The notes under the pieces were generated by a model. That model searched no databases. It was not told the origin of the DNA and saw only the letters and a list, made by a program, of their open reading frames with translations. Both the position numbers and the translations under genes were made by a program. From Saccoglossus kowalevskii (taxonomy: Eukaryota; Hemichordata; Enteropneusta; Harrimaniidae), in assembly GCF_000003605.2 (NCBI RefSeq), contig NW_003119432.1:15069-61811 (forward strand): a stretch of DNA of 46,743 bases, given 5' to 3'. Below, piece by piece: positions 1 to 45,881 of the stretch. The number at the start of each line of letters is the position of its first letter. Positions within the stretch are counted from its first letter, which is position 1.

Positions 1-102
1 CCCTCTAGTGCCCCTCCTCAATTTCAATTGTATATGTCCCTTCTTTGGAACATGTATAGGTATTAGGAGGGGCATAACCTATTACATTGGGGCGGAGTGG
101 GC

Positions 103-234: not shown

Positions 235-290
235 AAAATTCTTTCCCTCGAAAGCTCCACAGTTGCATGGTGTCAATTCTACTGTTTCAG

Positions 291-8309
<8,019 letters not shown>

Positions 8310-13953: not shown

Positions 13954-14091
13954 ATGACGACTACAGTTGGATCGAAGCAGATAGAAATGCGGAAACGCAG
14001 CGAGACAAGTGCAATGTGGATTGGATTGGTGAGAGGGGTTGTCGGTCCGCTCATAAGGATGAGAATGGCCAGTATGCGAACTAGTATGGCG
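13954..14091 (+). CDS. Candidate alternative first coding exon (46 codons)
   Basis: ATG at 13954 opens 46 codons that end in phase 0 at a good donor (gcg|gtaagt at 14092). The frame is open from an upstream TAA at 13873-13875. The peptide begins MTTTVGSKQIEMRKRSETSA and is basic and methionine/arginine-rich; no family recognised. Phase 0 is the phase needed to splice to the exon at 23997, so it could be another start of the downstream EF-hand/WD gene. It lies in the CpG-rich block. No homology supports it, so it may be chance. Confidence 0.25.
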
Positions 14092-17000: not shown

Positions 17001-18899
17001 CAGCTATAATAGGTTTTCCAAGGTGCGGCAGCCCTTTGTATGAAATTGACATGAAATAATTACTGACAAATAAATAACGCGCAGAGGAGTGGTAAATATC
17101 TTATTACCAGAATGAGATGATATCAAAAAAATAACATCAAAACTTAATAGTTTATAAAAAAAATGCAATACTGCCCTCCGTGGCGATATCTTATATGAAA
17201 TCTATTCCTTCATTAAGCAGCTTTACAAATATGTTTTGATATTCATTATAATATGAGTGTTCAATAAACCTTTTAATATTATTACTCCAATGCCGTGTTC
17301 ATTGCCTTTGAAAAAGTAAACTCACAAAAAGCCCTGCTTTGATGAATGCTTGTACGTGACATACTGTACACAAACTGAGCTATTGACAGTGGAGTTTAAG
17401 AAGGGGAAATCTTTTATTGTACATTACATACCGCCTGTAAAAATTATTTTTATCGAAATGGTTTTGATAAATTTTATGTCGTTGACCATGAAGGGGAGAA
17501 TCAATATTTCTTCTGGATTGACTAGATTCACGTTGTATCATAACTTCAAAAATGTACTCATCCGCTCTCTATATGTGAAGGCTTGGGTATGGGTTATTTT
17601 GAATAACTGTTTTCTTTTCAGAGGGACTAAAGTGTTTGCTATTTTCTCATATAGACTTTCAAATCATAAACTCGCCTCATAAAAATTAAAATAGCCCATC
17701 CCTTATCTACCTGTCGTCGCCATGGAAACCTGTTCTATGTTAATGTACTAGTAGTATCTCGTTTCACATGATACAACTACACATACCATACCAACTTGAA
17801 CCCTTTACGTGATTTGCAATTTTTGTAAGATCTATGACGACGTTGAATGACAGAGGAGATATATTAACTATTTTGGTATTGCCAACTGTTATATCCATGT
17901 ACAAACTATGGAAATACATTTCAAAATAAATATTATACAAATGCTAACACCAAAATAATAATCAAAAGCTCTGCAACGTTTTACGTATGGGTTGAGTTTA
18001 CATAAATGTTATATTTTTATTCCAATTATATGAGAATATGGATGCAATTTACTCGCGTATACTGGCAAAACCTGCTCTCACTCAGTATCATAGTCATTTT
18101 CCAGAAACGTGTTCTGTGTCTCACTTAAGTTTTAAAGTAATATTTAAGAAAACATTATCGAAACATTATAGAACATTAATCGATAGAACAACTTATAATA
18201 ATACACAAAACGATCGTGACATTTCAATTTTCAGAGCATTAAGGTAGTTGGCTACCATTCAAACGGATGTATTTTGACGTTTTTACCATGATGGTTTTAT
18301 TTATTTTTCACCAGATCTCAAACTTTTGTAGGGAATTGTGGTTGAAGAGAATTTTCACGACATCGCAATGATTACTCTTATCTTTTTTGATGAAATAATG
18401 CTTTACATGGCTACTTTTAGAAACTGTTAAAAAAATGTATGCATTTTTTTGCAAACAAATATTCGTTCTGGGAAAAACATCCTGAAAGGTTGGTTGATAG
18501 TACTGTGTTCTGGAACGAGGCTATCATTTATATTAATATGTGTAAATAGTTGAATAACACGCATATCACGGTTGTTCGGGACAATCCGACGTGTGAACAC
18601 AAAGCACCTTACACACTTCACAATTGAGAGAAGGAGATTTTTAATGTACATTATCCATTGTCCGTTATTAGTAATTTAATGGCTTAAAATTATTCATTAA
18701 TACAAAGTAAGACATTCTATACACAGCTCTGTACAATCACGTACAAGTACTTTTAATATATAACTGATCTTCGTTAGCTTAAAATCTGAGGTAAAGGCGC
18801 TCTGTTCAGTTTGAGTCTATCGAGAAGACTTGACTATCGTAAGAGCAACTTGACTCAAGCTGTGAGCGGGGCCCGAGTGTAGTTAATCTGCAGTCAGCA

Positions 18900-18968
18900 A
18901 TGCTTCGTACGGCGTATTTAAAACGTGAGAACGGACCTTCGTCTAAGAAGAAGCAGTTGAAACCACAG
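18900..18968 (+). CDS. EF-hand/WD gene, first coding exon, form 1
   Basis: ATG at 18900 with an in-frame TAA upstream at 18840-18842. 23 codons, MLRTAYLKRENGPSSKKKQL..., ending in phase 0 at donor gtaggc (18969). Highly basic. An initiator-like TTCAGTTTG lies at 18805-18813, about 90 nt upstream. Sits in the CpG-rich block, as expected for an unmethylated promoter. The short length means chance cannot be excluded without transcripts. Confidence 0.5.
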
Positions 18969-21363
18969 GTAGGCGTCGTTACATTTCGACAGTAACAGAA
19001 ATTATGATGCGTTTGTTGAATTTGCAATTGATGGGTTACTAGTTATATGGAATAGTTTACACCATATGCTTGTTATTAACTATTTGACACGCGCAAAATA
19101 ATAAGGTAGTCGTATACAATTGCGGCGGTATAGTCATAGTAACCGGAAATGTGTTTTGTCTCTGCTCTTGTAAGCATCGTCATCATGGTTATCACTTCCC
19201 ATGATTTAGTCGATACATTTAGTGTCTTACTGACGAACGACTCGTATTAGGTAGAGTGTACGTGTGCAATTATATGTTGTGTGTCAAGGTGCGGAACAAA
19301 AACAGAGTAGTTTCCGTTTGTCGACACAAATAACCCAGATATTATGTATTAAGTCAAGTCATGAAGGAGTAAAAGAAGATGCTCCATTATTGAGGGAGTA
19401 TAAACATCCTTAGACATTGGTTGTCAATAGATAAATGCACATACACGTACGCCTCTTACACATACGTGAGTGTGTCTTTAGTAGACGAACGAACAGGCGT
19501 CCGCACGGAGTTTTGTTGAAAAAACACGGCATCATCTAATATTTTCTTCGTTTGTTTCGAGGTTAGTGGAATTTCTACAGCGGACGGCGAAACGAATTTC
19601 CCTTGTAACATTGCAATATCCTTTGGTACAATCTTTACCAAGAATGATGAGGGGTAAAATTTATATACAGTATATACTCCCCCGCACTATGTCGAGGATG
19701 AAAATTCAATTTATGACTGAATATCATGATTTTTGTTCATATTCAAATTACAACAGTTACCGTGGATAACGCCGAAATTTCAGAATCGCTTTGCAAGACG
19801 GTGCTCTGAACGGTTGATTTTGTGGGCGATGTTCCTCTGTGAAAACCGTTTTCGATTTTGAGCTAAAGAACTGCGTGAAATATTGAAATGGTGATTGTTG
19901 TAATCCTATGAGCGTTCTACACTTGAATACATTGAATCAAGCATACAATTTAATTTCAAATTCGAAAAACCTCCTCAAATAATAGTAGAACGTTTGATCT
20001 GCAATCTGTCAACGGTTGAATGCAAAGTCACACGTAACAAGGAATATTGCAATGTTTGAGAAAAATTATAGAGAAAAGCACTTTTGTTGATCTGTTTATT
20101 TCGGCACCCGCTGTAATAGTATTATGGTATCAATGAATTATAAATCATCGATTCGACGTAAAGACCATCATCTTTTCAGTTTTAGTGCATGGGTTATGCA
20201 GCACTGCAGATACATGTTAAAGGGCGGTGGTCGTCGCGCTGCGCATGTCATTTGTGTTGATAAACATTGATTTTTCCACAATCCAATGCGTTCTACTAAT
20301 GGAAATCACAAGTTAGAGGTTTGACCTGGGCGCGACTTGCATCAATTACTGCCGGTGACTCCTTCGATACCTTCCAATCACCTAAAATACATAATTAAAG
20401 CTTAGCAACATCTCAGTTTGTACTCATTGATCTGCGCAACAGTCATAGTAGCCATCTTTGTTTATATGAGACCCATGTATCTCGCTCATGCGTGGCGCGA
20501 CGACTACCACACTTTAAGCATGCTTAAAATAAAATTAAAATAACATAAACTTAATAAATACAATAGTTGAAAATTGTTAGTAAATTACCATAGTGCTAGT
20601 TGAGCGAATCCACCATTTTCACGACACATATTAGTCAAACATATATTTATTTTTTGCAAATATGACGGGAAATAAATTATTATTCTTAATTTGCACGTGA
20701 TTATGAAAACTACAGTGTCAACCATGCATGTGATTACATCAAAATTCCGGGAATAATTTAAATCCACAAAGACAGGTTTTGTTATCGTCGTTTGAAAAAT
20801 ACTGTTGCTTTCAAGTTGTTTTATACAATTACTAAAATACATGCATATTCACGTGCCAACGAAGCTATATGGTTACTATGTGATTGGCTCTCAATTTGAT
20901 TTTCACAAACAATGGACAACCTACTTATAGCCCCAATGAATTTAGCATTTTAAGAACGAATAAATTGATTGGATTTTCACCTGACTGCACTTAATTTATT
21001 TGGTTTATTGGCTGCAACTGCCAGACGGAGTTGTCAAATGGTGAATAACAAATTCGTATGTCACTATTTATGTAATGTTTACATAAGACTGTAATCTAAC
21101 TAGTTGAACTATTAATATCTTTTTACGATTATTACTGTATTATAAATATATACATGCTTACACGACTTAGTGGGAAACAAAGTGTTACACTTTAACGAGG
21201 AATATCGTTTGGGGGCGCTGGTCATTCATCGTTGGTCGTCGTGAGATTTCAACAAGGGGCAACGTCCCGCCATATACCCGGTACATGAGATGTCCATGGG
21301 TTAGTTTATTTTGGAAATGCTAATAAAACAGACGCAATAAAAGAAATAACAGCACATTAAAAT

Positions 21364-21401
<38 letters not shown>

Positions 21402-24400
21402 ATCATGCATGTGGGGAATACTTTTGTTAAATGGCTAGGGGGTCAAGCAGGACAAATCGTATGATAATGACAGGAAGCTATTTAAAAACAAACGACAGGT
21501 TAGTTCTTGTTTACGGTTTTATTAAAATGCATTTTCGCAAAATGTCCCGACAGGAAAGACTCTTAGTTCCACAAACTGCTGAGACCGCGGAGTCTACGTA
21601 TACCAAACATTGAGCACAATTTGGGTGAGAGAAATTCGGTGAGCAAAATTCTGCGACGTCAGCAGAATATTGTCCACAAACTCAGACAAGGAATCATCAT
21701 ACCAGTTTGGGGAATATTATTTGCTCTTTCAAATTTCGCCAATGCCCTACTTTTATGTTACCGATATTAGTCGAAAAAATCGAGAAATTCGGAGCAGTGT
21801 GTATGGTTTTTCTAGCACAGTTGGTGGTATATGGCCTGTTAATATGCATCTATCAACTGATTGAACATGTAGAATAAATACAACTCATTGTTTCTCTGTG
21901 CTGAATATGCTCAAACATCAAAGTACTGAATATGGTAATTAATTGGATTGACAGTATGTGAAAATATGGCAAGGTTATTATTTTAGTCTTCTTAGTGTAT
22001 ACTTTTTTTTGTTTTTTTGTGGTATTCATGACAGCTGATCTTCCGTGGAATTCCGTCCTGCTATTGGTCAGAACAAGAAATCAATTTTTCATAAAGTCTT
22101 TATTGTGTATCACCAGACATTGTTATCTTTTTATCTGCCAGTAATTTAAGAACTTATTATATATGTAAATGAAATTAAAAAAGAGAACAGCAAAAGTACT
22201 GTATTCGGTCTAATTAGGACAAAAACAATTGTGTGGTAGCTAGGGTAGGTAGAACAGGGCTCGAAATTAACTTTTTTTTTTGGTAGTCCATCTGGGCTAC
22301 CACTTTTTAAATCTGGTAGCCCAAGATCAATCACTGGTAGCCCCAAATTTTTAAAGCAGTATTTATGCGAATGTCANNNNNNNNNNNNNNNNNNNNNNNN
22401 NNNNNNNNNNNNNNNNNNNNNNNNNNATTGGCTAAAAGACGTATCATCGACCACACGTTTCCAAACATCATCGGAAGTCGGGACGAAACGAAACGTCATC
22501 ATCAAATACATGTAGCAAGTTTTTTTTTTTTTTTTTTTAAATTTAAACTGTGTAATAAATTAAAATCTTATATATGTTGAAAAAAAAATTAGGATCAGGA
22601 CGTATTTTTAGGTAGGGTCGGGTTACCGGAAACACACCACTTTTTTTTAGGCCTATTTACAGTGAAGTCTTCCTGATGTGCCAAAAATCAGGACGATAAA
22701 CTCAGTGTCATTGATGTCTTCTTGAAATCTTGTGTAATTTTGTACTATTTTTTTATGTTTGGTCAAAAAAAGTTTAGGGTAGGATATTAAATTTAAGATA
22801 AAGCGGGGTTATTGGAACCTCACACATATTTTTGTTATTTGGTCTTTAATGTACATATGTGTACTGGCACTGCCTGTGGCCACACTAAGCGACTAGTGTA
22901 CAATTACCAATATTGCAATTTTTTGTCTATTTGAGATTGCTTCTAAATGAGCAAATACAGTGAATTATATTTCAAAGAATTTATCCCTAATTAATCCTCA
23001 CATTTATCATGTAACTACTAACTAGTATGTAGTTTTATTGACTGTCCTAGTTTTTATTAACAGCCTATTTCAGTTCCCAGATAGGATTTTAGAATGTCTA
23101 TTTCAGTGGAAAATAAAAGACAAATTTAAAGTGCACACAACACAGACCATACAGATTTTGTTCTTCAGTCCTACCCATGGCACTGTGCATAAGCCTAAAA
23201 GCATATATGTTTTAATAAAACATTACTTCTACAAAATTGTGAATATTTCAACAGGATTAGGCCACCCATTCTTAATATGATGACAGGTGTGCATGAGAAA
23301 AAAAAGTTGAAAAAAAACCCTTTATTTTCTTCTAGGCCTCGCTGACTGTTCTGAGTAATGTAATTATTGTAAAAGGTTGCGTTGAAAACACCCTGTCAAT
23401 AAAGCCTCAGAGTAAATACTGTTTGATTACTCTGCATAATACCAACTTGCTAATGCTGGCTTTATGAAATATGATGAGAATAATTATATATTCAATATTA
23501 ATATGACTAGTAACTATGTATATTGAAATTGTACAGTTAGACAAAAAAACATTCATACTCAAAAAATCACTGTCATAACATTAATTCAACAAATATTTAA
23601 TATTGCTTTTAATAGCATAATCAATCCATATAGATTGGGTGAAAGTGGAGAAAAAGGTACCGTATTCTTTCAGATCAATCCATGTCCCTCAATTACAAGC
23701 TAACCACCCCTATGCTCAATAATAATTTGACCCTGTCTTGAACACTTGTAGGCTAGCCTGTCTTTATTTTTGAGGCAATCTGATAATACACCTGGGTCTT
23801 GGGGCAATTAACTGATTTGCTGTCATTACTATCAGTGTGAGTACACCCCATAATTACTCAGAAAGACAGATCCTTACTTTTTACAACTCCAGGATTTTCT
23901 GAAAATGCTCGGATAAATCACACTTACTGCGGTTTTACTTAACGGGACATCTCTATTGTGAACTCACTTCTAACCTTGTATATATCCTTTTTATAGGCTG
24001 GTATAGACCCTGAACCACAATTAGATCGAAGGAGAAGAAAAAATAGTTTCTCTGATGATGATGCTGCACAGATTCAGAAGTAAGTAATTTTTTTTAAGCT
24101 TTCTGCCAAGTGATTATTATGTGTACTATACAACTGTGTACTAACTGATTACTAGTATATTGAATCGTAGAGTGTTTAACGCATTGCTGGTTTTTCCATT
24201 CATTCTGGCTATCCATGGAAGCTTTCAGCAGGCAGTGCGTCAAATGTAACCTTTATCCCAAGCTGATTTTGAAGTTATTTTGATTGTATTCCTATATCCT
24301 ATATACACCAAATGAATGGAATTTTCTGCTCACCTACAGCTCAATTAAATGGTATGCCTATAAGGTGTTGGTCCTGAAATGATCTCTTAATTTGACAATG

Positions 24401-27400
24401 GCCTCATAAAAAGTGTTCAGATTCATTACCTTTGTGTTGTTCACTGCATATGTTTGTATAACGGCGATGCGAAAGTTTGGATTTAAAAGTCTGTAAAAGC
24501 AGTAGTGATTTTTGATACACTGTGTTGTGTGTTTCATTCATTGAATGATCCTATCATTTGCTTGTATATAGATACCAGCATGGTTAGCTTTATGTCTACT
24601 AAACAAATACTGCTACAATTGTGTCCAATTACGAACCTGGTGTTGTGTTTGCTACATTTATTGTCTCTTAACTGCTACCTTAGAACTCAATAGAGTAAAC
24701 AATCACCCTGCTTACTACATAGCCGTCATATTAGACAATAACTATGTTGCCATAGTAATGACAATGCCTTGTCTTTATATCTTGGTTACACTCTGCTATA
24801 AAAATCACAAATTCAACCAGATGAAATGGTTGTCATAGTTACTAGCATTTAATGTGAATTTAAATTTAAATGGTTTTTAAAGTTTACTTGATCATTGAGT
24901 ATATTTGAGAAACCATTCTTTAATTGCATCATTTTGGCTAATGGCTATGATTTATTTATCAGTTAAGTTTTTCTCATTTAGAATTACTACCCCCCTCTAT
25001 AATAATGGTGGAATCCATTGAATTACATTCAGAGGTTGCCCTTATTACTGATAATGTATACAGTTTGCACTCAATAAACATGCAAATGGTGTTGCTTTAC
25101 AAATTGATAGCTTTACTCAGGGCTTTCCACTGACATTGTTTTATTGAACTCACAATACAAAGCTTTAATGCTAACCATTCCAATTAAAGTAATGTCTCAT
25201 TCTATTTAGGCTTTATCTTGGCGAAATTAATCCTTAGCAACTGCCATACACCTTCAGACACTGTGTTTAATTTGCACACCTACTGTAAAATACTTTATTT
25301 TTGCTTGGAATAAATTTTTGCTGAAGGAATGATTCAGTGAAAATAAAAACCAGCGAATATAACTTTTTTTTTATATTTTACATTCAACTCATCAAAAGTA
25401 TGTGAAAATAAATTTCATACAATACACCCAAAACGTCTTTTTAGTGAAAATTAATTCCAGCTAAAATAAATTATTTTACAGTAGATAGATAGATAGATAG
25501 ATAGAATTTTTTTTTTATTTGGAACATACCAATGAAATCTTGAGTAAAGTCCAAAAATAACGATAACAAAACAAAACATTCAGAACAACAAAAACTTACA
25601 GTATTAAAACATATCAAGAATATAGAAAATAAGTTTTGCAAAAATGCTAAGAATGAAAAAATCATTACTTGAAACAATAATAGGAAATAATTCATTCATG
25701 CTAAAATCTTCCAGCTTTGGGGCATAGATGTATAAAGCTGCAAGGAATCTAGATCTTTGTTCTTTGATTTGCCAATTATTACCGTAAAATCTGTATTAGA
25801 AGCCGCATCCCTAATAGAAGTCGCACCCATTCTTTTTGAATAATTGAGAATCAAAAATCATCATTTCTCATATGTGTAGATGCTCTAATAGAAGCCGCAT
25901 CCCTCTGTTGCTTTGTACCATTTTAATAGAAGCCGCAGCTTCTAATACAGATTTTACAGTACAATATAAAATGTAATGTTTCTCATCCCCTACTTCATTG
26001 CATTCATGGAGATTACATAGCCTGTTTTCCTTCAAAATGCCTTTATGTCTACCGGATTCAATGGGAAGAAAATGTGCAGAAGTTCTAAATTTAGTATAAG
26101 CTATTCTATGATTTTTATTTTTAATTTTTTCCAAATAATGTTCAAATTCAAAATTTTCTTTAGCACACTTGTAAAAGTCAAGCTTACAATTGTTCAACAA
26201 ATTGTTTTTCCACTTCATACGGTACAAACATTTGAGCTTCTCTTTAAAAATATCACAAAAATTGTTCTGATGTGGGTCTGAATTAGTTAGATCTGTTATG
26301 ACTAGTAATTTTTGTATAAAGTTAAGCCATGGGTCATGCACAAGAGTTTTGGATTCTTCATAGGCTGCATCAATGATAGAATTGTTTTTTTTTTACATAC
26401 TAGTCTTTGATAATATTTCATAACTGAAACACAGATATCCAATATAAGTGGATATTGACCTAATTCACCTCTACATGGGTCATTAGATGCCTTCCTGTGC
26501 ACACCCAGAACTCTTTTACAGAATTTAATATGAAGTTTTTCTGGAATTAATTTATCTGAGAAAAGTTTTGTTTCAAAATTGCAATTGTCAACTGTACATT
26601 TATTTTTACCAGACCCCTTGTAGATGTTCAGCATAACCCCTCCCCACACATCAGCCCCATATAAAGCTGTGGGTTTGATAATAGAGTTAAATAGATTTTT
26701 AGCCAGACTAACAGAATAACATTCCTCACTGATCCAAAGCATTTTGTACATCTTGAACAGTGCTTTCTGTGCTTTGTCTTGTAGCCTAGACATAGCATTA
26801 TGAAACTTACCATTTGTTTGAAAAACAATAAACAGTATATAAACACCGGTAAATACCAGCACTCGCACACACAGGCATCAGTTTGAAGGTGAAACAACAT
26901 TTTATACTATACTAGTAGTTCATAACTCGGGTGGGGGTTGGGTGTGGGGGTGGGTGTAGGGATGTGGGTGGGTGTTGTCAGTCGTAAGCACTTCTTTCTT
27001 TCTCTCTGTTTTTGAAAATTACAAATCCTGAGAAATTTTTTGCAAAAACATAGTTTTGTAAAAGTCACTGTAACTGCCCTGACTCTGAGAACTTAAGTGA
27101 AAATATTCCATCCTACAATATTTTCTGCTTTTCTTTAGTTCATGAAATTCATGCAAATTTATTGCAAAATTCAAAAGATTTGTAGATCAGCTATTTTTGG
27201 AATGCATTATTATAGCATGTGTCTCAAGCAGTTCCCTACTTCCTTTCTTATAAAATTTAAAAAGAAAATACAGACATACTGATTAACCCTAATTGTCACT
27301 TATCAGTAATGGCGCCCCCAATTGTCAGGTCATATCCTTCATCACAATAGTATCAGTGGCTGTGCTTTTATACAATACGGCACAGATTCTTGCCCATACA

Positions 27401-30400
27401 TGTAGCTGGTATCTATACAACTAATTACTTTTAACTTCTTTTTCCAGTTAAATTTATAAAACTATTATTATTATTATTATGATTATAAATTAAGTAATTA
27501 TGGTAGTCATTAATTTTTCAATGATTGTCCATAAAATGCTGTCAAAATTTATCATTTTAATTGCTGTGTTGCATATAGAACTGTACGTACCATGAGTCAT
27601 ACCATGAGTCGAGTCAGTTATATACAATGTTAGTTGATAAACTATTACCTACACACCCTTGGGAGTGAAGGTCTGCCAATGTCAGAGATAATGAAATTTA
27701 CTTATGCTCTGACTAAATCACCCTCAGTTGTGAGAATTGAGTTTTTCTACTGCATGGATAATTGAACGCACTGAATCCATTCATGCGTTCAAGAAATAAA
27801 ACCTTATAACAACCAAACAAGCAGAGTATAAATGGCTAGTTTTTGTTAGAGCACTTCTTTTCAAATTGAACAATAATTGGGAAGTTGATAAATATTCAGA
27901 CATTCATAGCGTTGTTCTCAATGGGCACTGTCGCACATCAATTACTTGCGCTGTAAATAAGACATACAGCCTTACAGTTAGATAACAACCGCTACTCATC
28001 AAGCTGGTAAGTACGTGAAATCTGTATCTCGCTTTCTTCTCTTAAAATAAACCAAACATTGTTTAAATTGAGCAGTCATACCTAGAGTATAGCTATTTCC
28101 TCCTGGATTTAAATCACTACATTTCTACAGTCTTATTTACTGTCACAATCAATTTTTGTTCAATCATGAAACATACTTAATGGTTGTGCTTTACACATTC
28201 CTTGGACGTGTAAAGAAACCGACTTCATAGATTGATTGGATATAATTCTCAATGTTCACCAGTCATACCCACAGTGATGATATAAAATAGGATAGGATAG
28301 GATATATAATCCCCTAAATAATCATTTATTTTTCAATGTTGTTAATGGACTTTTTATGGGTGCTACTCAACAATTGCCTTTATTATGTCTTGTTTATGTT
28401 CTGCCTGCATTTTCTTGATCAACATAACATGGTAATCAAGCCAAAAATGTGCCAGTTCACAAGGTACAAATATTGAAGTATGTAAAGAGCAGTCTCATAT
28501 TTAGCTCTATTGGAACAGTTGAAACTTATAGCATAAGGCCAAAAAAAAAATTGTTTTGTTGCCCTCAGCGACCGGCCGAAAAATATGAAATATCGGGTTG
28601 CGTTTTTTTTTTATTTAATAGGCCTAAATATTAAAAACTCACCATTTTAAGCAGTAAAAAAGTGTTTCCTCTAAAAGTTAACGATCCTGGACTGTTGTTT
28701 GATCTCCAGGGTCCCCGGGGGGATAAGTGGCGACTTTGAACCTCGGGTTGATCTGTATTTAAATAAAAAAACTTTGATTTGACTTTGATTTTTGTGTTTA
28801 ATATCTTGCATGCATTTGATTGATTCCCATATACATGGACTATTTACGATAACCCCAGTTTTCAAAAGTTTAAAAAAAAAAAAAAATCTACCGACAGACC
28901 AATTTTTAAATTTTCTGACTTGAGGACAACATAAGTTTTTTTGGCCTAAGGTGTTTCCCTCACTGAATACAATTTACAAAGAATGATCATGTATATCAGT
29001 ATGCTGTTCACAACATACTACCATGAACGAAAAGCAAGTGAGTTCATGGCCAATCAAATCACGTTTGAAGGGTTTTTACGCAACATTTGGCATTAATTGC
29101 TCAGATGAACTTTCATAAAATAGTTCTGTATTGATAAATCCACTTGATATTTCAAAGATTTTGATCAAAATTTGTAATTTTAGATCAAATGGTACTGTAC
29201 ACAATACCCTATTGGATTCCTTTTGTATATATAAATTCGCCTGTGTGAGAAAAAATAATAATCTCTCAATGAAAAAAATTCATGGGCTAATTTCTTTTAA
29301 ACTTGGTATTTACATTACGCATAGCTGATTACTGATGCATGTCATTTAGTTTTGTTTTTTGATATTCTTTCTCAGATTATTATTTTACAGATTATGTTTT
29401 GTATTTTGTACAATGCAAGACATATTATGGGTTGTATGTTTTCTTCACTTATTTTGGGATTTTGATGGCAGCCATTTTTGTGAATAAACTAAAATCACAC
29501 AATTGTAGCACATCATCATCTGTTTCAGCATAGACCCTCTGGTTTCACTGGTGTTGCTAGGACGATTTTGTTCAAACTTGGTATGAACATCACATGTGAT
29601 TGAATACTAATGCAAGTCAATTTGTATTGTGATTTGATTTAAAATGGTTGCCTGGTAACCATATAGGTTTTATTTTTATGTGTCCTTAACCAATTCTTAG
29701 GATGTAATTTTTGTTGAAAGTAGGTGCAAAAACAAGTGATAAACTTTTCACCACCAAACTTTCTTGCCCAAATCTGTCTGCACATTTTTTCTAAATTCTT
29801 CAATATTCTTCAAAGCTTTTGGACTCACAGTTACGGACTAGTTGTCGAAAATAACATTTTTTATCAAAAATAACAAAAATATTGACTAAAAATTCAAATT
29901 TGCATATTTTGAGACGAATTTAACAAATCTGACAGAGGACTTACTCAAGTACCTTTGGTACAAATATGAATGTAATTGGTCAAGTACTTTTGAAGAAGAA
30001 GTCGTTTAAAGGAAAACTTCACGGAGGACGCAGGACGGACAACGCCGAAGAGACCCCCATACCAACAGCTCCGCTGGGTCATCTGCAATGACAGCGGAGC
30101 TAATAGTAAAAGTGGATATGTTTGAATGTATTGTATGAAAAATTTTTGATAAAAAATGTTATTTTCGACAACTTGTCCGTAACCGTGAGTCCAAATGCTC
30201 TGATATTTGCAGCAATGGTACTCGGGGTGGTCCTCTGTCAGATTTGTTAAATTTGTGTCAAAATATGCAAATTTGGATTTTTAGTGAATATTTTTGTCAT
30301 TTATGGTAAAAAATGTTATTTTCGACAACTAGTCTGAAACCGTCAACCACAATGCCACTGAGTTCTTGTTCCATGATAATGAAGACAGCGGAGCTATTTC

Positions 30401-36400: not shown

Positions 36401-39400
36401 TATTTTTGTAAGCTACTAATAGTTCAAATATGGAAATTATAATTAATAAGTTGCCTGCTGAAAGCTTCCACATATAGCTGTGATATGAAAGAAAATATAA
36501 TGGTGAACATGAACTGGTGCAGCAATATATATATTAGATAATATTTGGTAATCGTTGTCCTAAGTAACTATTAAAAATAGCTAGACGCTTTGAGCAATGG
36601 TTCTTTATCGATAGCATAGAAGTAAATGTTTTATGGTTTTTATGGTTCTTTCAGAAAATTAGAAAACAGAAATTCTGTTTTAGTATTTCAGATCCGTTGT
36701 TTCACTTATATCACCCCCTCAGGATATCACTTCACTGTAGGTTTAAAAAAAAATGTTGTGGGTAAAGGAAAAAAGCAGAAAAATTTAAAATTATCAAGTC
36801 TAAATGTCAGTAAAATATTTGCCATATATGGTCCTAAGATTTCAAGTAGGGAGAAATGGAATTTCAAATAAAAGTGCAGTAAATATATTACCCCCCCCCC
36901 CCACAGTGTTGAATGGTATACTGGTAATTCACCCATTATATTGTAATTATAAGATATACTACTCCAAACACTTAATGGTTCCTCTTCCACTTAAACTCTT
37001 GCCTAAGTGGTCTCAAGTAGTATAATTTTATAATTTTGTCACACTTGAGTGATAAACCTGACATAGCAATTAACATTTCCAGGTTGTAAAATGCATCAGT
37101 GATTAATTCTTTAATTTAGAAAATTCAAGATTAAAATTAAAATTTTCTATTCAATCATTTATAGCATTATCAAATTATATTCCATATACATTTTTTGTAA
37201 TAGCTTCTTTCCCTGCTTTTATGAATAACTGATACATGAACTTGAAGCAGCTTTACTTCGCTTTGTGAAAAAAAGTTTTTTTTTTTGAATTTCACCATTA
37301 TGTTTTTAATGAGTTGGCTAGTTGATTAATCCATCTTAACAACATCATCCTAGTTTGTCATATTGGCATTTGCAGTGATTTATGCCCACTGAGGCACTCC
37401 TAGTGATGGGTGCTTTATTAGCAGAAAGAACCAATTAGGCTACAGATAAAAGCCCCCTGGTTGATTTTTATAGGCGCTGCACTGTGCATGTCAAGAAAAG
37501 CCTATCAATAAAATGTTGTTATTGCATACTGGCTAGTCTGTGTTTAGAGTCGGCAAGCAGCAGGGATGCTTATACAAGTGAATGCTACATCTGTGGGCTG
37601 TACATGTCAACAAGGTTACCCACTCTGTTTTGTGTTTGTATCACATCAAATGCTGGTACATGATTCTGGAAACTATACAGGAAAACTTTTAGGCTGTGTT
37701 TTTTAACTTGAATCTCATGGATGACTACAATCTCAGGTTTGTTGTGTATTTTTATTAGAGATGTTTAGTACTATATTTGTTAGTTTTAGTCGTTTTAATG
37801 TGATCCGCTGCAGGCTATAATAGCTGAGACAACACAATTAATAAAATAAACCAAATACATGTAATATGCTTTAATAAAGTTGTCTGAGCATTCTAACCAC
37901 CCTTCTTCATTAATTTACTAGACATAACATAGTCTCGTTTCAATAATATATATATAATATGATATGGGAATTATATTTTCGTTTTTTTTTTTCTTTCGAA
38001 TGATATTTTAGACCGTTCGGTAAATGTGTGACATAATACGTATATAATATGATATGGGAATTATATTTTTGGTGTCTGTTTCTCGAATGATATTTTAGAC
38101 CGTTCGGTAAATGTGTGACATAAGTATTCTGAGCCGTATATAAGATTTTCCTGTGATTTTTAGGGCTGTGACTAACATGATCCTCTGACTCCTAGTCAAT
38201 ACTCGTTATTTCCCTATTTACACTTTAACTAAATAGATTTCATATAGATTATTTTAAAAAATGAAAATGTTCAATTTTAGTTGTAATTTAGAAAAAAATT
38301 GGTAAAAAAAATCATTATATATGTTCATTCTGTGAAAAGCAATAAAGATTGGTGATGGCAATAAATTGCTATAGAAAAGATAATAAATTTGTTGATTTAA
38401 CAACATAATTTTGGGGAAATTGCCATTATTGTCTCAGACAGTCTAATGTTTGCAGATCTTTGATAGACTACATTCCAACCAGGCTATTTGCCTGACTCTT
38501 TCTGTAATTTGATGCTGAGTATATACTACCCTTTCATGTAAGAATGGTTGATCCCTAAACTGGAATATCATTTTATAGTATATTTTAAAGAATTTTGGAG
38601 TTTGAAAATTCGCAAAGCTGCAATAGAGCAAATACTGTAGTTAGATTAAAGTTACAATTTTGTTATTTTCCCTAAAAAGGATATTTAATATTAATGTATT
38701 TATTTTATATACACCCGATAAAATCAGTTGCTCCGCAATAGGTCAGTTGTCTCATTAATGAAATCACTATAGTAGTTTTGTTGTTGACTGTACATGTGTA
38801 TATATGCAGATTTGATACTTTTTCATTTATTAATTGCTTGTGGATACTGCATTTTGATAATTATCTGTCTATGTTGGGAGTTGCCATGACAACCACTTTA
38901 AACCTGTGGTTTCTCAACAGTTGAATAAAGGTTTAGAAATCAGAATATTGTAATTATTGCCTGATATGTATACAATATTATATGATGTTTATACATGTAG
39001 GATTGACCTAAATAGTCAATACATTTCTAAAGATGCAATAAATGTTACAGTTACATGTATCTGTGGAGATTTCCAAGTGCGTCATATTTGCAACATGCTA
39101 GTTTTCCTGCAAAACAGGTATATAGCTGAGTCACTGTTTTATGTTCATTGACAATAAGACAATTTGATTCAACTGTGATTTATATAGGGTACAGCTTCCT
39201 AAGGTAATTTGAAACTGTCGCCTCTTTGTTAAGATCTCTCAATGGGAACCAAGCCTCACTTGAGCTTTTATGAGAATAACTGTAAAAGGAACAACTTAAT
39301 ATACAAGATGTGTCTTGTTGCCATGTCAACATGGCTGTAATGCACATTTTTATTGGATATCACAATTTTGATGGAAAAATAGTACTATTTACTGGCTGTA

Positions 39401-42400
39401 ATGAAAATGAATCTAATGCTTGGAGATAAAAAGAATTTTTGGGTTCATTTATGGTCTGATTTAAAGCAAGGGAAATGATTGTTTCTGCAAAGGATATTAC
39501 TATTCTAAGAGTTACCATATACTAGTACTTTTTTCAATCTGTAGAAATCTTGGCCAAGGGGGTATTTTTTTATGGCAGCTCTAGTTATTAAAAAATGTGA
39601 CCCACTTGGTGTGGCACCACTATTTGGGTGTTAGCTAGTGTGGAGTGAAAAGAAATTGGTTGTGTAATTAGGCTTTCAATGTTTTTTTGAAACTGTTTGA
39701 ATGGGAATAATAGAGTTGTGCAACTGGGCTTTCACTGTAAACGCAGGGTGCCATGTGTCAATATTTATCCTTGTTTTATCCCTACTTGTTCACTTATGAA
39801 TAGAATTCTCCATGGACCCTCCAGAAATTTTAGTCTGCATGCCATGGATTAAACTATTCTGCCCAAGGTGGGCAGGTGAACATTGTTCATGTGAATGTTT
39901 ATTTTAGACTCTGTATTGTGAACAAGCATGGGTTCTTTATTTATTTATTATGCTTGTCAATGTTCGCACAACATCCTGTCCATTCACCCCTCTAGCCTAT
40001 CACCCCTATCACAGAGTGGTATGTCTGTTTCTTATTCTTGACAATAGTTGTCCACACTAGTGACTTCTCTATCCCATTGGCATGTCATTGTTATACAGTG
40101 ATGATATGTCAAGAGTTTCTTTAGTATACTTGTTTAAAACATAACTGAATGTATTGGAACTCTGCACATCATGCCCAACTGATTGCTAGCTGGGATATGC
40201 TGTCATCGTGCTGGTGATAAAAAATGGAGGAAAATAGTCTTAGCTCTACTGAAGATAGAAGCTCGCTAACATCTACTTCCTCAGAGTTTCAGGGATTAAT
40301 TACGAACCAAAACAGTTATTTATATGACAGTGACAGTAGTTCGTGGGATGATGATGGCCAAGGCAGCAATTTCTCATTTTTTGAGGATAAAAGAACTTAT
40401 AACTTGTAAGTTGTGTTTCTCTCTAACCATGTGGCCTTAATTGTTTTCATTCATATACACACTGTGTTATGTACCATTTATTTTGTGTAAAGACTCTGAC
40501 CTCCCATAACACAGACTGTTAAACAGTCCATGGCATTTTACTGCATCATATCAAGAATAGCACTACATATGTCAGTGACCCTGTGCTGCCCTTGGTGGAG
40601 GTGATATGCACTCAACACATGCAGTAACGTTATTTAGACAGTTGCTAGGGATTTGAAGATTGATACTATAACCATGTAGTTCTGCAAGTTATCAGTTTCC
40701 AGATAAAGCCACATTCCAATATGGTTCTGTAGTTTTTTCTGTATTTTTTCTTTCTTTTTTGGTTTTTTTTTTACTACAATGCTCGTAAGCATATGGAATA
40801 CTATAAAAAATTTGGTATACACAGACTGCATGTTTTGAATAATATGTCATAAAAATATTAATAACTAATAGAAATATTGAATAGTAATAATAATAATAAG
40901 CTATGCTACATCAATATGTAACGTTTTTTGATAATTTTGTAAACAATTTTGAATTTTGTCCTGATCCGTGACAATTCAGTTGACTTGAACAGTTTGAATA
41001 GACGTTGTTACAGTAACATTGGATTTCCAACCAGGTGTAAATCTTTGGCCTGTCAGCTTACTGTCATGTTTCACTCTAATATATACAATAGAAAAACATT
41101 TTATTTGGCTGTGCAAAGTTTTCTCAAGTCTTAAGTTACTATTTGTCATAAGTGGTTACTAACCAAGAAATCCTAGATCACTATCGGTTTATCCAGTGCA
41201 CGAACTATGCATGGAGTATTTTGACTTCCACTGGAATTACCATACTCTCCCAAAATAATGTTGCGTGAGTATTCACGACCAAAGAGCAGGTCCTGTACTG
41301 GTAGTAATTTTTACACTGGTGGGAGTGGGTCTTCCAGTCGGCCTGCTACATCATCAAGTATTGGTTCTTTCAGAAGTGCTCCATCATCACTGGAGTCTGC
41401 ACCGCCACATCGCAGACCGAGCTCACCGCCGGTAGATAATGAACTCACACATGTGGAGTAGTAAGTTAGCAAATTTTATACCGATCCAATCTAGAGAAAG
41501 TAATCACCTACTTGATCTGTATTCTGATGTTTGATGGTTGTAAAAAAATGTTTCCTGATTAATCTTTCTTGGAATATTAATTTTGTTTCACACACAATTT
41601 TTGTCGTATATACACACTCATGGTTCAAAATTGTAACCACATACTGTTAGCTGCAAATTATGTAGATTTAACGTTGGCTACTGTGGACAGTTTTGTCTCC
41701 ATAAATCTCCACATTTACCAGGACAACAAATCACACAGGTATTGTGAAGTGAATCAGTGATAATTCATATTTTGTATACAACAAGTTGCCACAAATCAGT
41801 AAAAATAGTTATACTAATTTTAGGGGAAAATAATCATATTTTTAATTTTTTTTTCTCTCATTTTACAGGTTTTATTAAAACATTTTTTGGGAAATAGGAA
41901 AGTTAATTTAAATATAGTAATAGTACATAATAATAATAATAATAGGAAAGTAATTAAAAAAAAAGGTGTTGTACGAATAATTAGTCAGTCTCGATACCCC
42001 AATATATTATATAATGAAAACAAAATATACAACTATATATTAGTTTACATATTCAAAGTGTTAAAATGTTGAAAACACATTTTTGTAGGCAGACCCCATC
42101 TTTTCAAATACAGCTGGTTTTAAGCAGAATCATTGTGACTTTTTGAGTTGGTGTACAGAATAATACAACTGGAGGACTTTAACTTATTCCATTAATAGGG
42201 TCTTTCATGTTAAACTGTGTTCAAGCAAGGTGGTCTAGCTCTCATTGTAAAGGTCATATCTATTTAGTGTGGTAACACTTCACTATGTACAAACTGATTT
42301 ATCATGGAGTTAATCTCCACTGAATCAGAACACCAGAACAGAATTAAATGCTATCGGGCATTTTCAACATACATTGAAAACTAATTCCTGTATCTTATTA

Positions 42401-45400
42401 AAATTAAATATTCAAATCCATGCCCTAAGGAGTTTTTTCCCCCTGCCCTGGTATCAATCATGGGTGGAGACGTTTATTGATTGCATGTTCCTTTTACAAT
42501 AGCCTATACAAATGTTTACATTTTTTGTTGTTTTTCTGTTTGGTACTTGAATATGGAAAACTAAATATACCCTCAGCAGTAGTCAGCCATTGTTAATTGC
42601 TATGGCAATGATTTATATAAAACTACCATATATATTATATATATATATATATATTAGTAATATTTGTAATTTAATGAATAACTAATTACCAGTAATTATC
42701 CTTGATATGTTCTTTGCAATTTACTGATATTTATGTTTTACCAGTATAATTATTTTTTTAATTTGGAAATCCTGGTGAATGTGCTTAATGAAAGCACCAA
42801 CATTTCTCTGCTACAAAATACAAACTGCGATTACTTTAATAGTAATTTCTGGTCTATATATTCATCATTTTATGGAGAAAGTTGCAGGTTTCAAGTTCAT
42901 AGGGAGTTCAGTTATACTATACAAGTAAATTTAATATATCCAGATTGTAGTGAACAGACTGTACATTTTATTATCACGTTTGACACTGTCAATGACTAGC
43001 ATTGTGTGTCGGTGTTATTAGGTACAGTTCCAATTTCAAAGTTAACCTATCGTATCCCGCACATTCTTACACCAGGGTGTTAATCCAATTCTATGGTTTG
43101 TGGCTGACAATTGCATAGACTTGACACATCCTATCTTCCCATATACCAGTTCATTTAGTGGTAATGACAATCCAACAAAGAGATGGAAAAGAGTTGGTTT
43201 TATTTTGACTGTTACCACGGCAACCAATGAAGGTCATGCTCAGGACATATAGCTGATGGTGATCTCCAGCCTACTAGTATTTCAACAGTGAGTGAATCAG
43301 AATCTCCTGAAAAGATTTTTTAATAAAATGTAAAACAAACTGAAACAATCATAAGCACCAAAATATTTCACAAAATAATATAATTATTTCCATACTTTTA
43401 ACCTGTAACCAGTGTGAAATTATGTGTTCATTATGGTCCAAAATTATCAAAGAAACCATAAAAATGTGCAAAAAGTTGCAACCAAATTTTGAGGGAAAAA
43501 TATGATGATGTTTAAATGGTTGAGAAGGATTTGTAGATTTAATCTAGGAGTCAATATATTTAACTAAATTAAACTAAATAGAGGACACAGTAGATAAAAA
43601 GAATATGATGCTATCCCATAATGCAATAATGTATTCCCAGAGATTTTAGAATCTTTGCCTTTTGAACAATTCTTCTATTTGACAACACCGCCTTTAGTTT
43701 GATGTGTAATGTAGTATACACTTCCATTGACTGCATATTTATAAACTAACATGACCGCTAATTGTTCAGATTCAGTCACTGTATAATTACAAAATTTACA
43801 ATGACTTTAATCCAAAATGACAGTTACCATTGCTTTAAAAGGAGGTATTGCCAAATATGTGACCAACATATATCGAAGTGTCAAGTATTTGAAAATCTTC
43901 TTCGATCGTATATAATTAAAAATTATTGTTGACAAGTCACGTACAAGTGCAATGTAGCCTTTGTAGTGATAATATTTGATTTGAAATGTGATTTTCACTG
44001 GGTTTTCAACAAAAAAGGTTAACAGTGATGAAAGAGAATTGCAGTGACTTTAGTTTGTTGCCCGGTTGGATCTCCCATGGCAACCATGTATATGGCATAA
44101 CTGAATGTTCAACAACATTCCTGCATCGTCTCTCCCTAGTGAAAAAAATCTTTTGAAGATTGTAACAATTAACACTCTATTTAGTTCTGAAAGTTTGTTT
44201 TTTTTAAATAAAAGAAAAAATTGGCAAGAATTGTAAACAAACCATTTGTGTTTCTGTGTTTCTGTGTCGTAAATGCTGTAACAATTGAGTGAGGTCATGT
44301 CACCTTCAGTTGTCCTGCTGCTATGTATTTTAACTATAACAGCACTCTGCTACTTACATGTTCTAAAGCCTTGTGGTAATTGGAACTTCCTTTGTTCAAG
44401 CACTTGAAAACATCGCAAACATGCTACAATTCAAACCAACATCTTTTGAATGACAATGTCTGTTAACAATGCTCAATAAATATTTTGCCATGATTTGTTC
44501 AGATCCTGAATATTGTTATACTGCCAAGGCTCGATTTCAAATTAAATAGCAGTGTCAAATTTTGTTACTTTTCAAGTCTTAAGACTCTGCATATCCACAC
44601 TGACACCTCATTATTAACCAGACTTATGTGTAAAAAAACTCACGTTGAACATTTAGGGATTACTTGATTCTGTTTTTTTTTTTTTGGGGGGGGGGTATCC
44701 TAGATTGACTGGCATATAGCAAATATGGCAGTGATCCATACTACCTTTACAGTAACTTGTTTTCTTCTTAAAGAATATTTATGTACAATACTTTCTAGCA
44801 ATTGGCTTGTGTGTATAATTCTGTCTTTAGGTGTGTATACCAAACAAAATTCTGCTTTTTACAAGTTTTAGGTGAATATTGCTTCAAACTATCATATTTG
44901 CTCTGACAGAAGTGTATCTCCAATAGAAGTGTATGTAAACCACAAATTGCACATACATGTATGTATGTAGTGTTGACCATAGACTTATCTCTGTCTTTTA
45001 AGGAAGTGCATATGCGCTATTATTTACAGACTCACTAATCTGCACAAGAATATCTCTGGATGTTCATGCTGATTGCTGATTTTGTGATCATATCGCAATT
45101 AAAATCGACTCCTTCAATTTGTGTGAGATCTTCATCGCACACCTGGCAGCCTCATTTGATAAATCCTTGATTATGTATATATCGAGGTTCTTATAAAAGT
45201 ATTATGCAGGAACCAAGGACTGGGAAATAAAGTAACACACATCATTTGTATTATCAAAATTCAATTATAGTAAAAAAGTCTAAAATGTTAATCTCAAAAT
45301 TGAGATTATCAGCAACATATTATATTAGCAGCTGTGAACAGATTAGTTCAACATTTGTTGAAGATTAATGTTAGGATATTTAATATCAAAAGGCATGGTC

Positions 45401-45881
45401 CTAAGAGACAATTTACAGGAAATAAAGGGCAGTCTGAAATCTACCAGTGTGTGTGGTTTCTCATGACCTCAAATAACCCCTAAATTAAATTGCATCCTGA
45501 ATAGGATACTCTTGAATGTTTTCTAGCTTGTGTGAGAGAAGAGCGCGAGACTGTGCTTTAGAGCTTAAACAATTGTGTAGAAGTCTTTGTTATTAATTCC
45601 TGTGCAATCTCTTCATCTTATTTTCCAGTTTCCAAGACCAGAACATCCGATTTGAAGAACACATTAATCTTCATCATCTTGAGACATTAATGCAAAAGTT
45701 TGCTGAACACAGACCAAAAAATGACATGTCAGGACAAGTGGGCAGACATGATCACAGAATTGCTGGTAAGGCTGAGAAACGAGAACCTGGCAACATGACG
45801 CTAGAAGAATTTAAAGAGACCATTGCTAGTATGCTTGGTACTGATGCCTGGGATGATCAGATGGAATCTCTCTTTGCTAAG
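18900..45881 (+). CDS. EF-hand/WD40 protein, WDR49/WDR64/WDY-like, 5' part with alternative N-termini
   Basis: Gene extends beyond the window. Form 1 joins 18900-18968, 23997-24079 and 45629-45881; forms 2 and 3 begin at 40224 or 41258 and join the same 45629 exon. All three joins are phase 2. Seen: the common exon encodes a helical stretch NLHHLETLMQKFAEH, then TLEEFKETIASML and DQMESLFAKV, the layout of the EF-hand-like region before the WD40 repeats in WDR49/WDR64 and the fly Y-linked WDY protein. Known: WDR49 homologues (CFAP337) are axonemal proteins of motile cilia. Inferred: a ciliary/flagellar role. No WD repeats are visible because they lie downstream. Other EF-hand proteins remain possible. 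Confidence 0.55.
20217..20517. mobile_element. MITE, TTAA-type (piggyBac-like termini), copy B
   Basis: TTAA at both ends (20217-20220 and 20514-20517). Inverted repeats: AGGGCGGTGGTCGTCGCGCT on the left against AGTGTGGTAGTCGTCGCGCC read from the right. Interior ends resemble copy A at 103-234. 301 bp, no ORF, so it would depend on a transposase in trans. Confidence 0.68.
21367..21398. repeat. (AT)16 microsatellite
   Basis: Uninterrupted AT dinucleotides, 32 bp. Confidence 0.95.
22253..22376. repeat. Dispersed-repeat fragment with GGTAGCCC motifs, cut by gap
   Basis: Begins AGGGCTCGAAATTAAC and has three CTGGTAGCCC-like or GGGCTACCA motifs; runs into the N gap. This looks like a known type of genomic dispersed repeat in marine invertebrates, but I cannot name the family. 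Confidence 0.4.
22377..22426. other. Assembly gap (50 N)
   Basis: Run of 50 undefined bases; the size suggests a placeholder or short scaffold gap. Confidence 0.99.
22580..22828. repeat. Diverged direct repeat pair
   Basis: Two about 60-bp related segments, 22580-22640 (ending GGGTTACCGGAAACACACC) and 22763-22828 (ending GGGGTTATTGGAACCTCACA). Both start with an A-rich run and carry a TAGG(G)TAGG-like core. Probably parts of an old dispersed repeat. Confidence 0.4.
23997..24079 (+). CDS. EF-hand/WD gene, second coding exon, form 1
   Basis: Acceptor tttatag ends at 23996 after a pyrimidine-rich tract; donor gtaagt begins at 24080. Phase 0 in, phase 2 out. 27 complete codons, AGIDPEPQLDRRRRKNSFSD through DDAAQIQ, with a basic RRRRK patch followed by an acidic run. 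The RRRRKNSFS stretch resembles a basophilic kinase site (inference). Too short to show as an ORF by itself. Confidence 0.55.
25283..25481. mobile_element. MITE family CTGTAAAATAC, copy 2
   Basis: Perfectly TA-flanked (25281-25282 and 25482-25483). Left end CTGTAAAATACTTTATTTTT, right end AAATAAATTATTTTACAG. About 199 bp; the interior matches copy 1 (TGAAGGAATGATTCAGTGAAAA). Directly abuts the (TAGA)n tail of the LINE. Confidence 0.75.
25482..25504. repeat. (TAGA)n microsatellite
   Basis: About six TAGA units at the LINE 3' end; forms the tail of the element. Confidence 0.9.
25604..26835 (-). pseudogene. LINE reverse transcriptase C-terminus, frameshifted and MITE-interrupted
   Basis: Two open stretches (26302-26868 and 25868-26341, minus strand) belong to one former ORF. 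The shift maps to the homopolymer 26385-26394: on either side of it the frame reads sensibly (SVMKYYQRLVCKK before, HDPWLNFIQKLL after). The second break is the MITE after ...HYILYC; the coding line continues at 25779 with NNWQIKEQRSRFLAAL. No full reverse-transcriptase catalytic domain is present. Confidence 0.75.
25782..25959. mobile_element. Second TA-flanked MITE, nested in the LINE
   Basis: TA at 25780-25781 and 25960-25961. Left end CCGTAAAATCTGTATTAGAA, right end TTCTAATACAGATTTTACAG; the arms match for over 20 bp with one mismatch. Interior carries three or more copies of TAATAGAAGCCGC or TAATAGAAGTCGC. 178 bp. Confidence 0.8.
26929..26977. repeat. G-rich tract, potential G-quadruplex
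   Basis: At least eight runs of three to five G separated by one to five bases, of the form GGGTGGGGGTTGGGTG. Lies just outside the 5' truncation of the LINE. Confidence 0.7.
28534..28950. mobile_element. Putative inverted-repeat element, TAAGGCCAAAAAAA termini
   Basis: Left end ATAAGGCCAAAAAAAAAATT, right end (reverse complement) CTTAGGCCAAAAAAACTTAT. Arms share GTTG(C/T)CCTC further in. The interior includes a GC-rich piece (28705-28750) and an A/T tail (ATTTAAATAAAAAAACTTTG) that looks like a retroelement 3' end, so the element may be composite. No clear target duplication found. Confidence 0.4.
29270..30430. repeat. Composite foldback repeat
   Basis: Nearly matching 105-bp inverted arms at 29836-29940 and 30230-30334 (both reading GACTAGTTGTCGAAAATAAC at the outer end). 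A third partial copy of the right arm lies at about 30130-30229, a perfect 10-bp hairpin (AGCTCCGCTG ... CAGCGGAGCT) at 30067-30101, and two related 'AACTTGGTAT' segments at 29300 and 29577. The 30.0-30.1 kb core is CpG-rich and contrasts with the host intron. Confidence 0.7.
32113..32417. mobile_element. MITE family CTGTAAAATAC, copy 3, enlarged
   Basis: Left end CTGTAAAATACTTTATTTTA, right end AAAATAAAATGATTTGCAG followed by TA. At 305 bp it is about 100 bp longer than the others. Its middle (about 32215-32335) matches sequence at about 29325-29430 (TAGCTGATTACT, TTTCTTTCTC, CAAGACATATT). Confidence 0.65.
32573..33325. repeat. Minisatellite edges around the large gap
   Basis: TATGTCACA(G)CACACCCAAACACT occurs left of the gap (32573) and right of it (33260); CACCT(C/T)AGATAAATC occurs at 32609 and 33310. 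Orientation is the same, as expected for a tandem array. Confidence 0.55.
32624..33231. other. Assembly gap (608 N)
   Basis: Both sides carry CACACCCAAACACT(T)GAA and AGATAAATC motifs, so the gap probably hides a tandem repeat. Confidence 0.99.
36891..36902. repeat. C12 homopolymer
   Basis: Twelve C followed by ACAG. Together with similar G runs at 5073-5089, 15375-15387 and 44686-44695 (the last preceded by T13), it marks places where sequence length may be unreliable. Confidence 0.9.
37951..38122. repeat. Tandem duplication, 90-bp period
   Basis: Two copies starting TATATAATATGATATGGGAA at 37951 and 38041. Both contain TTCTCGAATGATATTTTAGA or its one-base variant and GACCGTTCGGTAAATGTGTG. 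They differ mainly in a T-rich stretch. Confidence 0.9.
40224..40405 (+). CDS. Alternative first coding exon, form 2 (Ser/Asp-rich N-terminus)
   Basis: ATG at 40224 with an in-frame TAA just before it at 40218-40220 and no acceptor between, so this is a genuine start exon rather than an internal one. Donor gtaagt begins at 40406; phase 2 out, matching the common exon at 45629. The 60 codons are low-complexity and acidic: MEENSLSSTEDRSSLTSTSS, later YDSDSSSWDDDGQGSNF. Confidence 0.55.
41258..41460 (+). CDS. Alternative first coding exon, form 3 (Ser/Pro-rich N-terminus)
   Basis: ATG at 41258 with an in-frame TGA at 41222-41224 and no acceptor AG between them. Donor gtaagt begins at 41461; phase 2 out, matching 45629. 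67 codons, basic then Ser/Gly/Pro-rich: MLREYSRPKSRSCTGSN, later SSSRPATSSSIGSFRSAPSS and PPHRRPSSPPVDNELTHVE. The composition suggests a disordered tail. Locally richer in coding-like codons than the surrounding AT-rich DNA. Confidence 0.6.
41461..45628 (+). other. Intron before the common exon
   Basis: About 4.2 kb without a recognised exon. Holds an (AT)n run near 42630-42655, an 88-codon open frame at 42733-42999 of unknown meaning, an RFX X-box-like site at 43211-43224, and a T13G10 run at 44673-44695. Confidence 0.4.
43211..43224. promoter_or_regulatory. RFX X-box-like motif
   Basis: GTTACC AC GGCAAC fits the consensus GTNRCC-N(0-3)-RGYAAC without mismatch. Lies 2.4 kb upstream of the common exon of the putative ciliary gene. 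A match of this kind can occur by chance in this much sequence. Confidence 0.3.
45629..45881 (+). CDS. EF-hand/WD gene, common exon
   Basis: Acceptor ttttccag ends at 45628; donor gtaacc begins at 45882; phase 2 in, phase 0 out. 84 codons beginning FQDQNIRFEEHINLHHLETL, then a charged linker (KPKND..., HDHRIAGKAEKREPGN) and TLEEFKETIASMLGTDAW, DQMESLFAKV. The last helix is the start of an EF-hand whose calcium loop would lie on the next exon, outside the window. Codon use and length are clearly coding-like. Confidence 0.8.

What the first reader, a model, noticed from the sequence alone, without database searches (positions are those of the whole stretch)
18900..45881. Nested alternative first exons giving one EF-hand/WD protein three different N-terminal tails
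Three separate start modules (18900-18968 plus 23997-24079; 40224-40405; 41258-41460) each have an in-frame upstream stop, a GTAAGT donor and a phase-2 end. All three fit the single acceptor at 45629. The tails differ sharply: basic with an RRRRK patch, acidic Ser/Asp-rich, and Ser/Pro/Arg-rich. Two of the starts cannot be internal exons because a stop precedes the ATG with no acceptor between. This suggests nested promoters spread over 27 kb that choose the N-terminal tail.
Basis: partly seen in the sequence, partly recalled or inferred. Interest (0 to 1): 0.75.

Follow-up and report, generated by a model that had tools for sequence, protein, structure and literature searches.

The report
Three alternative starts for one gene
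A gene that may encode a cilium or sperm-tail protein appears to have three alternative first coding segments, each giving the same protein a different front tail; this is a known way for genes to vary their products, and transcripts are still needed to prove it here.

Summary
The anatomy is real. Modules m1 (18900-18968+23997-24079), m2 (40224-40405) and m3 (41258-41460) each start with ATG after an in-frame stop, stay open, end in phase 2 at GTAAGT and fit the acceptor at 45629. Simulated 27-kb sequence gave on average 0.027 such modules of 60+ aa, none of 150 runs with two; the window has two. The tails are richer in disorder-promoting residues than any open non-coding window of equal length examined. 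m2 and m3 are not repeats; the shared exon is the only copy found. Best reading: alternative first exons of one gene, perhaps of the WDR49/FAP337/WDY axonemal kind. Not shown: transcripts, promoters, conservation, or the EF-hand/WD identity (nothing above cutoff in Pfam or PDB; the next 20 kb read N). 'Cannot be internal exons' is too strong: m2 has good acceptors 209-228 bp upstream and could follow a non-coding exon. Against: synonymous codon use gives no support, and looser criteria find similar modules on both strands. Alternative first exons are a known kind; SPAG16 is an axonemal precedent.

The parts
18900..18968 (+). m1 exon 1: ATG, 23 codons, phase 0, donor GTAGGC
   Evidence: donor rank 7 of 5312 GTs
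23997..24079 (+). m1 exon 2: ends phase 2 at GTAAGT; RRRRK patch
   Evidence: acceptor rank 108 of 4616, donor rank 68 of 5312
40224..40405 (+). m2: 60 codons + 2 nt, acidic and Ser-rich tail (15 S, 12 D+E, 3 K+R of 60), donor GTAAGT
   Evidence: donor rank 149 of 5312; no match elsewhere in the assembly
41258..41460 (+). m3: 67 codons + 2 nt, Ser/Pro/Arg-rich tail (18 S, 8 P, 8 K+R of 67), donor GTAAGT
   Evidence: donor rank 237 of 5312; GC 0.498, reached by 7 of 6794 background windows; no match elsewhere in the assembly
45629..45881 (+). shared first common exon, 84 codons after the split codon, donor GTAACC
   Evidence: acceptor rank 15 of 4616; longest phase-compatible open run among 20 plus-strand acceptors scoring >=5 in 41461-46000 (89 aa against at most 33); only match to itself in the assembly at E<=10
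39996..40223 (+). possible spliced 5' leader of m2 (acceptors at 39996 and 40015); candidate only
41004..41017 (+). X-box-like site GTTGTTACAGTAAC, 254 bp upstream of the m3 ATG; candidate only
38880..38893 (+). X-box-like site, 1 mismatch to the recalled palindrome, 1344 bp upstream of the m2 ATG; candidate only
39317..39330 (+). X-box-like site, 1 mismatch to the recalled palindrome, 907 bp upstream of the m2 ATG; not a match to the restricted published consensus

Best explanation
Three alternative first coding modules (m1 has two exons) splice in phase 2 to one acceptor at 45629, so that one gene makes three proteins with the same body and different, probably disordered N-terminal tails: basic, acidic Ser-rich, and Ser/Pro/Arg-rich. 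Most likely each start has its own promoter used in different ciliated or germ cells, and the tail tunes docking, targeting or phosphorylation of an axonemal WDR49/FAP337/WDY-type protein. Shown: frames, phases, splice signals, no second copy found, tail composition beyond the null. Inferred: transcription from separate promoters, the tissue rule, the identity of the body and what the tails do.
For: Frames and phases; two GTAAGT modules against 0.027 expected, 0 of 150 simulations with two; tail composition beyond the null windows (0 of 2955, 1596, 1018); 45629 stands out by open run length; m2 and m3 are not repeats; no cassette exon passing the filters between 24080 and 45600 on either strand; open frames on the same strand at C1217:83477-84766, beyond a stretch that reads N, would fit a long gene that continues (that they belong to it is inferred).
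Against: No transcript, TSS or relative was available. Synonymous codon use does not support m2 or m3. Looser criteria find as many modules on the minus strand, and one false-looking plus module is also phase 2. The m2 and m3 donors lack G at -1 and rank only 149 and 237 of 5312. X-box-like sites are about as dense outside the gene (8) as inside (13), so they do not mark the three starts. Body identity unproven; in fly WDY the first EF-hand motif is placed at residue 47 (PMC10786823, section 20), whereas the most EF-like stretch here (MTLEEF) would fall at residue 107-124. Gaps of 608 and 50 N inside the gene's introns could hide exons.
Confidence: 0.6

Rival explanations
1. One promoter near 18.8 kb, or an unseen non-coding first exon, with alternative splicing: m2 and/or m3 are ATG-bearing exons with a spliced 5' leader, so the choice is made by splicing and not by promoters.
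For: Strong acceptors 209-228 bp upstream of the m2 ATG (39996, 40015; rank 34 and 81 of 4616). Upstream of m3 the sequence shows a TACTAAC branch-like motif before a modest acceptor at 41197 (score 4.5).
Against: A transcript carrying m1's own ATG and then joining m2 or m3 would meet stops; no leader exon was identified; acceptors near m3 are mediocre.
Confidence: 0.2
2. Only one start (m1, or m1 plus one other) is used; the remaining module is a chance open frame beside a GTAAGT or a decayed exon.
For: Looser criteria produce other modules on both strands; no synonymous codon support; a stricter filter drops m2 and m3.
Against: Simulated rate 0.027 per 27 kb and tail composition beyond the null windows.
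Confidence: 0.14
3. m2 and/or m3 begin a different, nested transcript whose later exons were missed or lie in sequence that reads N downstream.
For: The 20 kb after the window read N.
Against: No other plus-strand acceptor scoring >=5 in 41461-46000 gives a phase-compatible run above 33 aa; no internal exon passing the filters between 24080 and 45600.
Confidence: 0.06

Closest known systems
SPAG16 alternative promoters, SPAG16L/SPAG16S (PMC5282894: abstract and passages seen)
   Same: A cilia/flagella gene makes isoforms from alternative promoters, with partly different location and function.
   Different: There the two proteins are 71 and 35 kDa; here only a short N-terminal tail would be exchanged, three ways.
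WDR49 / WDR64 / FAP337 / WDY family (PMC11779644 and PMC11151096: passages; PMC10786823: passages and sections 10 and 20)
   Same: Proposed body: EF-hand followed by WD repeats in a ciliary or sperm protein. PMC11779644 proposes WDR64 as a sperm-specific paralogue of WDR49.
   Different: In mammals paralogous genes are proposed to supply the cell-type difference; here one gene with three starts could. Family membership not shown.
C. elegans unc-68 tissue isoforms (PMC7644089: search listing with start of abstract)
   Same: A single invertebrate gene whose isoforms may do what several vertebrate genes do.
   Different: A ryanodine receptor, studied experimentally; here sequence only.

Membership tests
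Alternative first exons of one gene | Two or more start exons in the same phase fitting one acceptor | tested here: met
Alternative first exons of one gene | Start exons are coding rather than chance frames | tested here: met
   (composition and simulation); mixed, weaker
Alternative first exons of one gene | Separate transcription starts | not testable with these tools
   No RNA data; core-motif and X-box scans do not single out the starts
Alternative first exons of one gene | Junctions to 45629 seen in transcripts | not testable with these tools
   no transcripts available
WDR49/FAP337/WDY family | N-terminal EF-hand pair | tested here: inconclusive
   nothing above cutoff; no canonical loop in the shared exon; the second motif would lie beyond the window; fold prediction failed
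WDR49/FAP337/WDY family | WD-repeat propellers after the EF-hands | not testable with these tools
   C1217:61812-82006 reads N; open frames further on gave only a sub-cutoff WD40_2 match, E 0.092, for 1 of 3
RFX-driven ciliary gene | X-box within 1 kb upstream of the ATG (restricted consensus of PMC2375033) | tested here: inconclusive
   One site for m1 (490 bp), none for m2, one for m3 (254 bp); 0.46 per kb expected at window density, 0.13 at control density

The most novel reading that the evidence does not exclude
A single axonemal gene uses three nested ciliary promoters to swap N-terminal tails, doing with isoforms what mammals are proposed to do with the paralogues WDR49 and sperm-specific WDR64, so that the tail decides in which cilium or at which docking site the protein sits.
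Probability: 0.15. Interest if true: 0.6.

Novelty: new member of a known kind. Interest (0 to 1): 0.35.

Why it matters
If transcripts confirm it, the gene offers a clean test of how cell types adjust one axonemal part: isoform choice from one locus instead of paralogues. The three tails differ in charge and serine content, so their effects on localisation are easy to test. The mechanism itself is common.

Tried and rejected
Led nowhere: identifying the body by Pfam or PDB sequence (one search's one hit, WDR20 at E 0.35, is not significant). A PDB search with a longer query hit troponin C and calmodulin, but 20 residues of that query came from my recall and lie in the hit region, so it is discarded. 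Close paralogue: the shared exon matched only itself at E<=10, and the exon-like frame at C1217:84063-84221 only itself at the default cutoff; stretches that read N are not covered. Repeat origin of m2/m3: rejected, since 39600-41700 matches elsewhere only at about 40831-40918, an AT-rich low-complexity stretch. Around m1, only flanking pieces at about 18329-18447 match elsewhere; m1's second exon was not searched.

X-box sites as a mark of the three starts: rejected. Restricted consensus: 21 in the window against 14 in 106,365 control bases (ratio 3.46; binomial p 0.00025). A recalled strict pattern: 9 against 5, p 0.009. Recalled palindrome with up to 2 mismatches: 6 in the window against 0.13 in shuffles and 3 in control, p 0.026; up to 3: 12 against 1.66 in shuffles and 9 in control, p 0.009. 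The loose consensus gave 92 strand-hits against 62.4 simulated. But three of the 21 sites lie in one local repeat, 13 lie inside and 8 outside 18900-45881, about equal per base, and the motif was chosen after looking. A FOXJ1-like 7-mer is not enriched (13 against 33, p 0.67). Control: one search had 12 stretches; two (L022, L023) read all N and were left out, which used the other 10.

Ten paper searches were answered; in the titles and abstract starts listed I saw no report of alternative promoters for WDR49/WDR64/FAP337. One search listed 30 of 240 papers, all on alternative promoters or first exons in general, so this is weak.

Full report
What the window is. It lies at G000:C1217:15069-61811 of a 572-Mb, 4830-contig assembly. 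RINT1 (Pfam RINT1_TIP1, best E 7.4e-57) occupies roughly 1-8300 on the plus strand. The next plus-strand gene is the one in the finding. Sequence on both sides of the window (C1217:1-15068 and 61812-82006) reads N, so the middle of the gene could not be read. Open frames appear on the same strand at C1217:83477-84766; that they belong to this gene is inferred.

Check of the observation. The coordinates, frames, stops and phases hold. m1's first exon ends at GTAGGC and its second at GTAAGT; m2 and m3 end at GTAAGT. Joined to 45629 the frames stay open to 45881. Scores from a recalled generic splice matrix rank the 45629 acceptor 15 of 4616 AGs and m1's acceptor 108 of 4616, and the donors of m1 exon 1, m1 exon 2, m2 and m3 at 7, 68, 149 and 237 of 5312 GTs, both strands counted. 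Of 20 plus-strand acceptors scoring at least 5 between 41461 and 46000, only 45629 continues the required phase for more than 33 residues.

Chance. The window has 18 GTAAGT on plus and 6 on minus; 7 plus and 0 minus sites end an ATG frame of at least 40 aa, four of the seven in the RINT1 span. Simulated first-order sequence gives 0.027 phase-2 modules of at least 60 aa per 27 kb, with at least one in 4 of 150 runs and two in none. The share of disorder-promoting residues in the tails (0.76, 0.60, 0.70; residue set recalled) is not reached by any open window of the same length in the unmasked part of the window, both strands (0 of 2955, 0 of 1596, 0 of 1018). Masked were 1-8400, the modules, the shared exon and 25860-26910. 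Such windows overlap, so these are not independent trials.

Results against. Codon log-odds place m1 at 0 of 3306, m2 at 53 of 1904 and m3 at 19 of 1297 null windows, but the synonymous part alone gives nothing. With donors of score at least 5.5 there are 4 plus and 4 minus modules of at least 60 aa, and 10 plus and 11 minus of at least 40 aa. Of the 4 minus ones, three lie in an interspersed repeat. A stricter filter returned only 13954-14091 and neither m2 nor m3. The length-and-donor shape alone is therefore not rare; the perfect GTAAGT with matching phase, and the tail composition, carry the case.

Uniqueness. The 39600-41700 region matches elsewhere only at an AT-rich low-complexity stretch. 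The shared exon matches only itself at E up to 10. m2 and m3 are therefore not repeat-borne, and no close paralogue of the shared exon was found in the readable assembly.

How it probably works. Three starts, one acceptor, three tails. Acceptors at 39996 and 40015 upstream of m2 score 9.3 and 8.2, while m1 has none above 4.1 within 500 bp. Separate promoters are favoured because a transcript that already carries m1's ATG would stop on entering m2 or m3, but this is inference. Within 600 bp upstream, a TATA-like motif occurs for m1 (18757) and m3 (40802) and none for m2.

Regulatory hints. X-box-like sites (RFX consensus from PMC2375033, passages seen) are denser in the window than in 106,365 control bases (21 against 14). 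m3 has one 254 bp and m1 one 490 bp upstream of the ATG; m2 has none within 1 kb by the restricted consensus. At the window's own density 0.46 per kb are expected, and density outside the gene is about that inside. The same paper states that one X-box upstream of an ATG does not predict RFX-dependent expression. This is a hint about the locus at most, not evidence for three promoters.

Identity. The EF-hand/WD label is plausible from recall of WDR49/WDY-like sequences, but no tool confirmed it. A longer PDB query that seemed to confirm it contained recalled residues and is set aside. PMC10786823 (sections 10 and 20) describes WDY with a pseudo EF-hand motif from residue 47, a canonical one after it, and two WD40 propellers; here the EF-like stretch would fall later, at residue 107-124 depending on the tail. 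If the label is right, the body is a protein of the FAP337/WDR49 kind, placed at CCDC96/CCDC113 and the base of dynein d (PMC11151096, passages). PMC11779644 proposes WDR64 as a sperm-specific paralogue of WDR49 (passages).

Verdict. A probable example of alternative first exons, a common mechanism with a cilia/flagella precedent (SPAG16; PMC5282894, abstract and passages). It deserves a transcript check more than a claim of novelty.

Noticed in passing
window 1-8300 (+): RINT1 gene exons (Pfam RINT1_TIP1) lie directly upstream on the same strand.
   Followed up: partly
window 25868-26890 (-): Interspersed repeat with long broken open frames; 45 matching pieces in the assembly, itself included, 79-100% identical. 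Looks like a retrotransposon by eye, but Pfam found nothing at E<=1.
   Followed up: partly
window 45765: Strong internal donor (score 10.6) inside the shared exon, stronger than the exon's own donor at 45881 (7.2); could give a shortened exon.
   Followed up: no
window, 21 sites: X-box-like RFX sites 3.46 times denser than in control stretches of the same assembly; three of them (29841, 30158, 30315) sit in one local repeat family.
   Followed up: partly
window 37943-38123: Two tandem copies of an 87-bp unit in the intron.
   Followed up: no
G000:C1217:126310-127704 and 128999-130210: Two long intronless open frames that look like galactosyltransferases by eye; used as most of the codon training set (869 of 1280 codons).
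   Followed up: no
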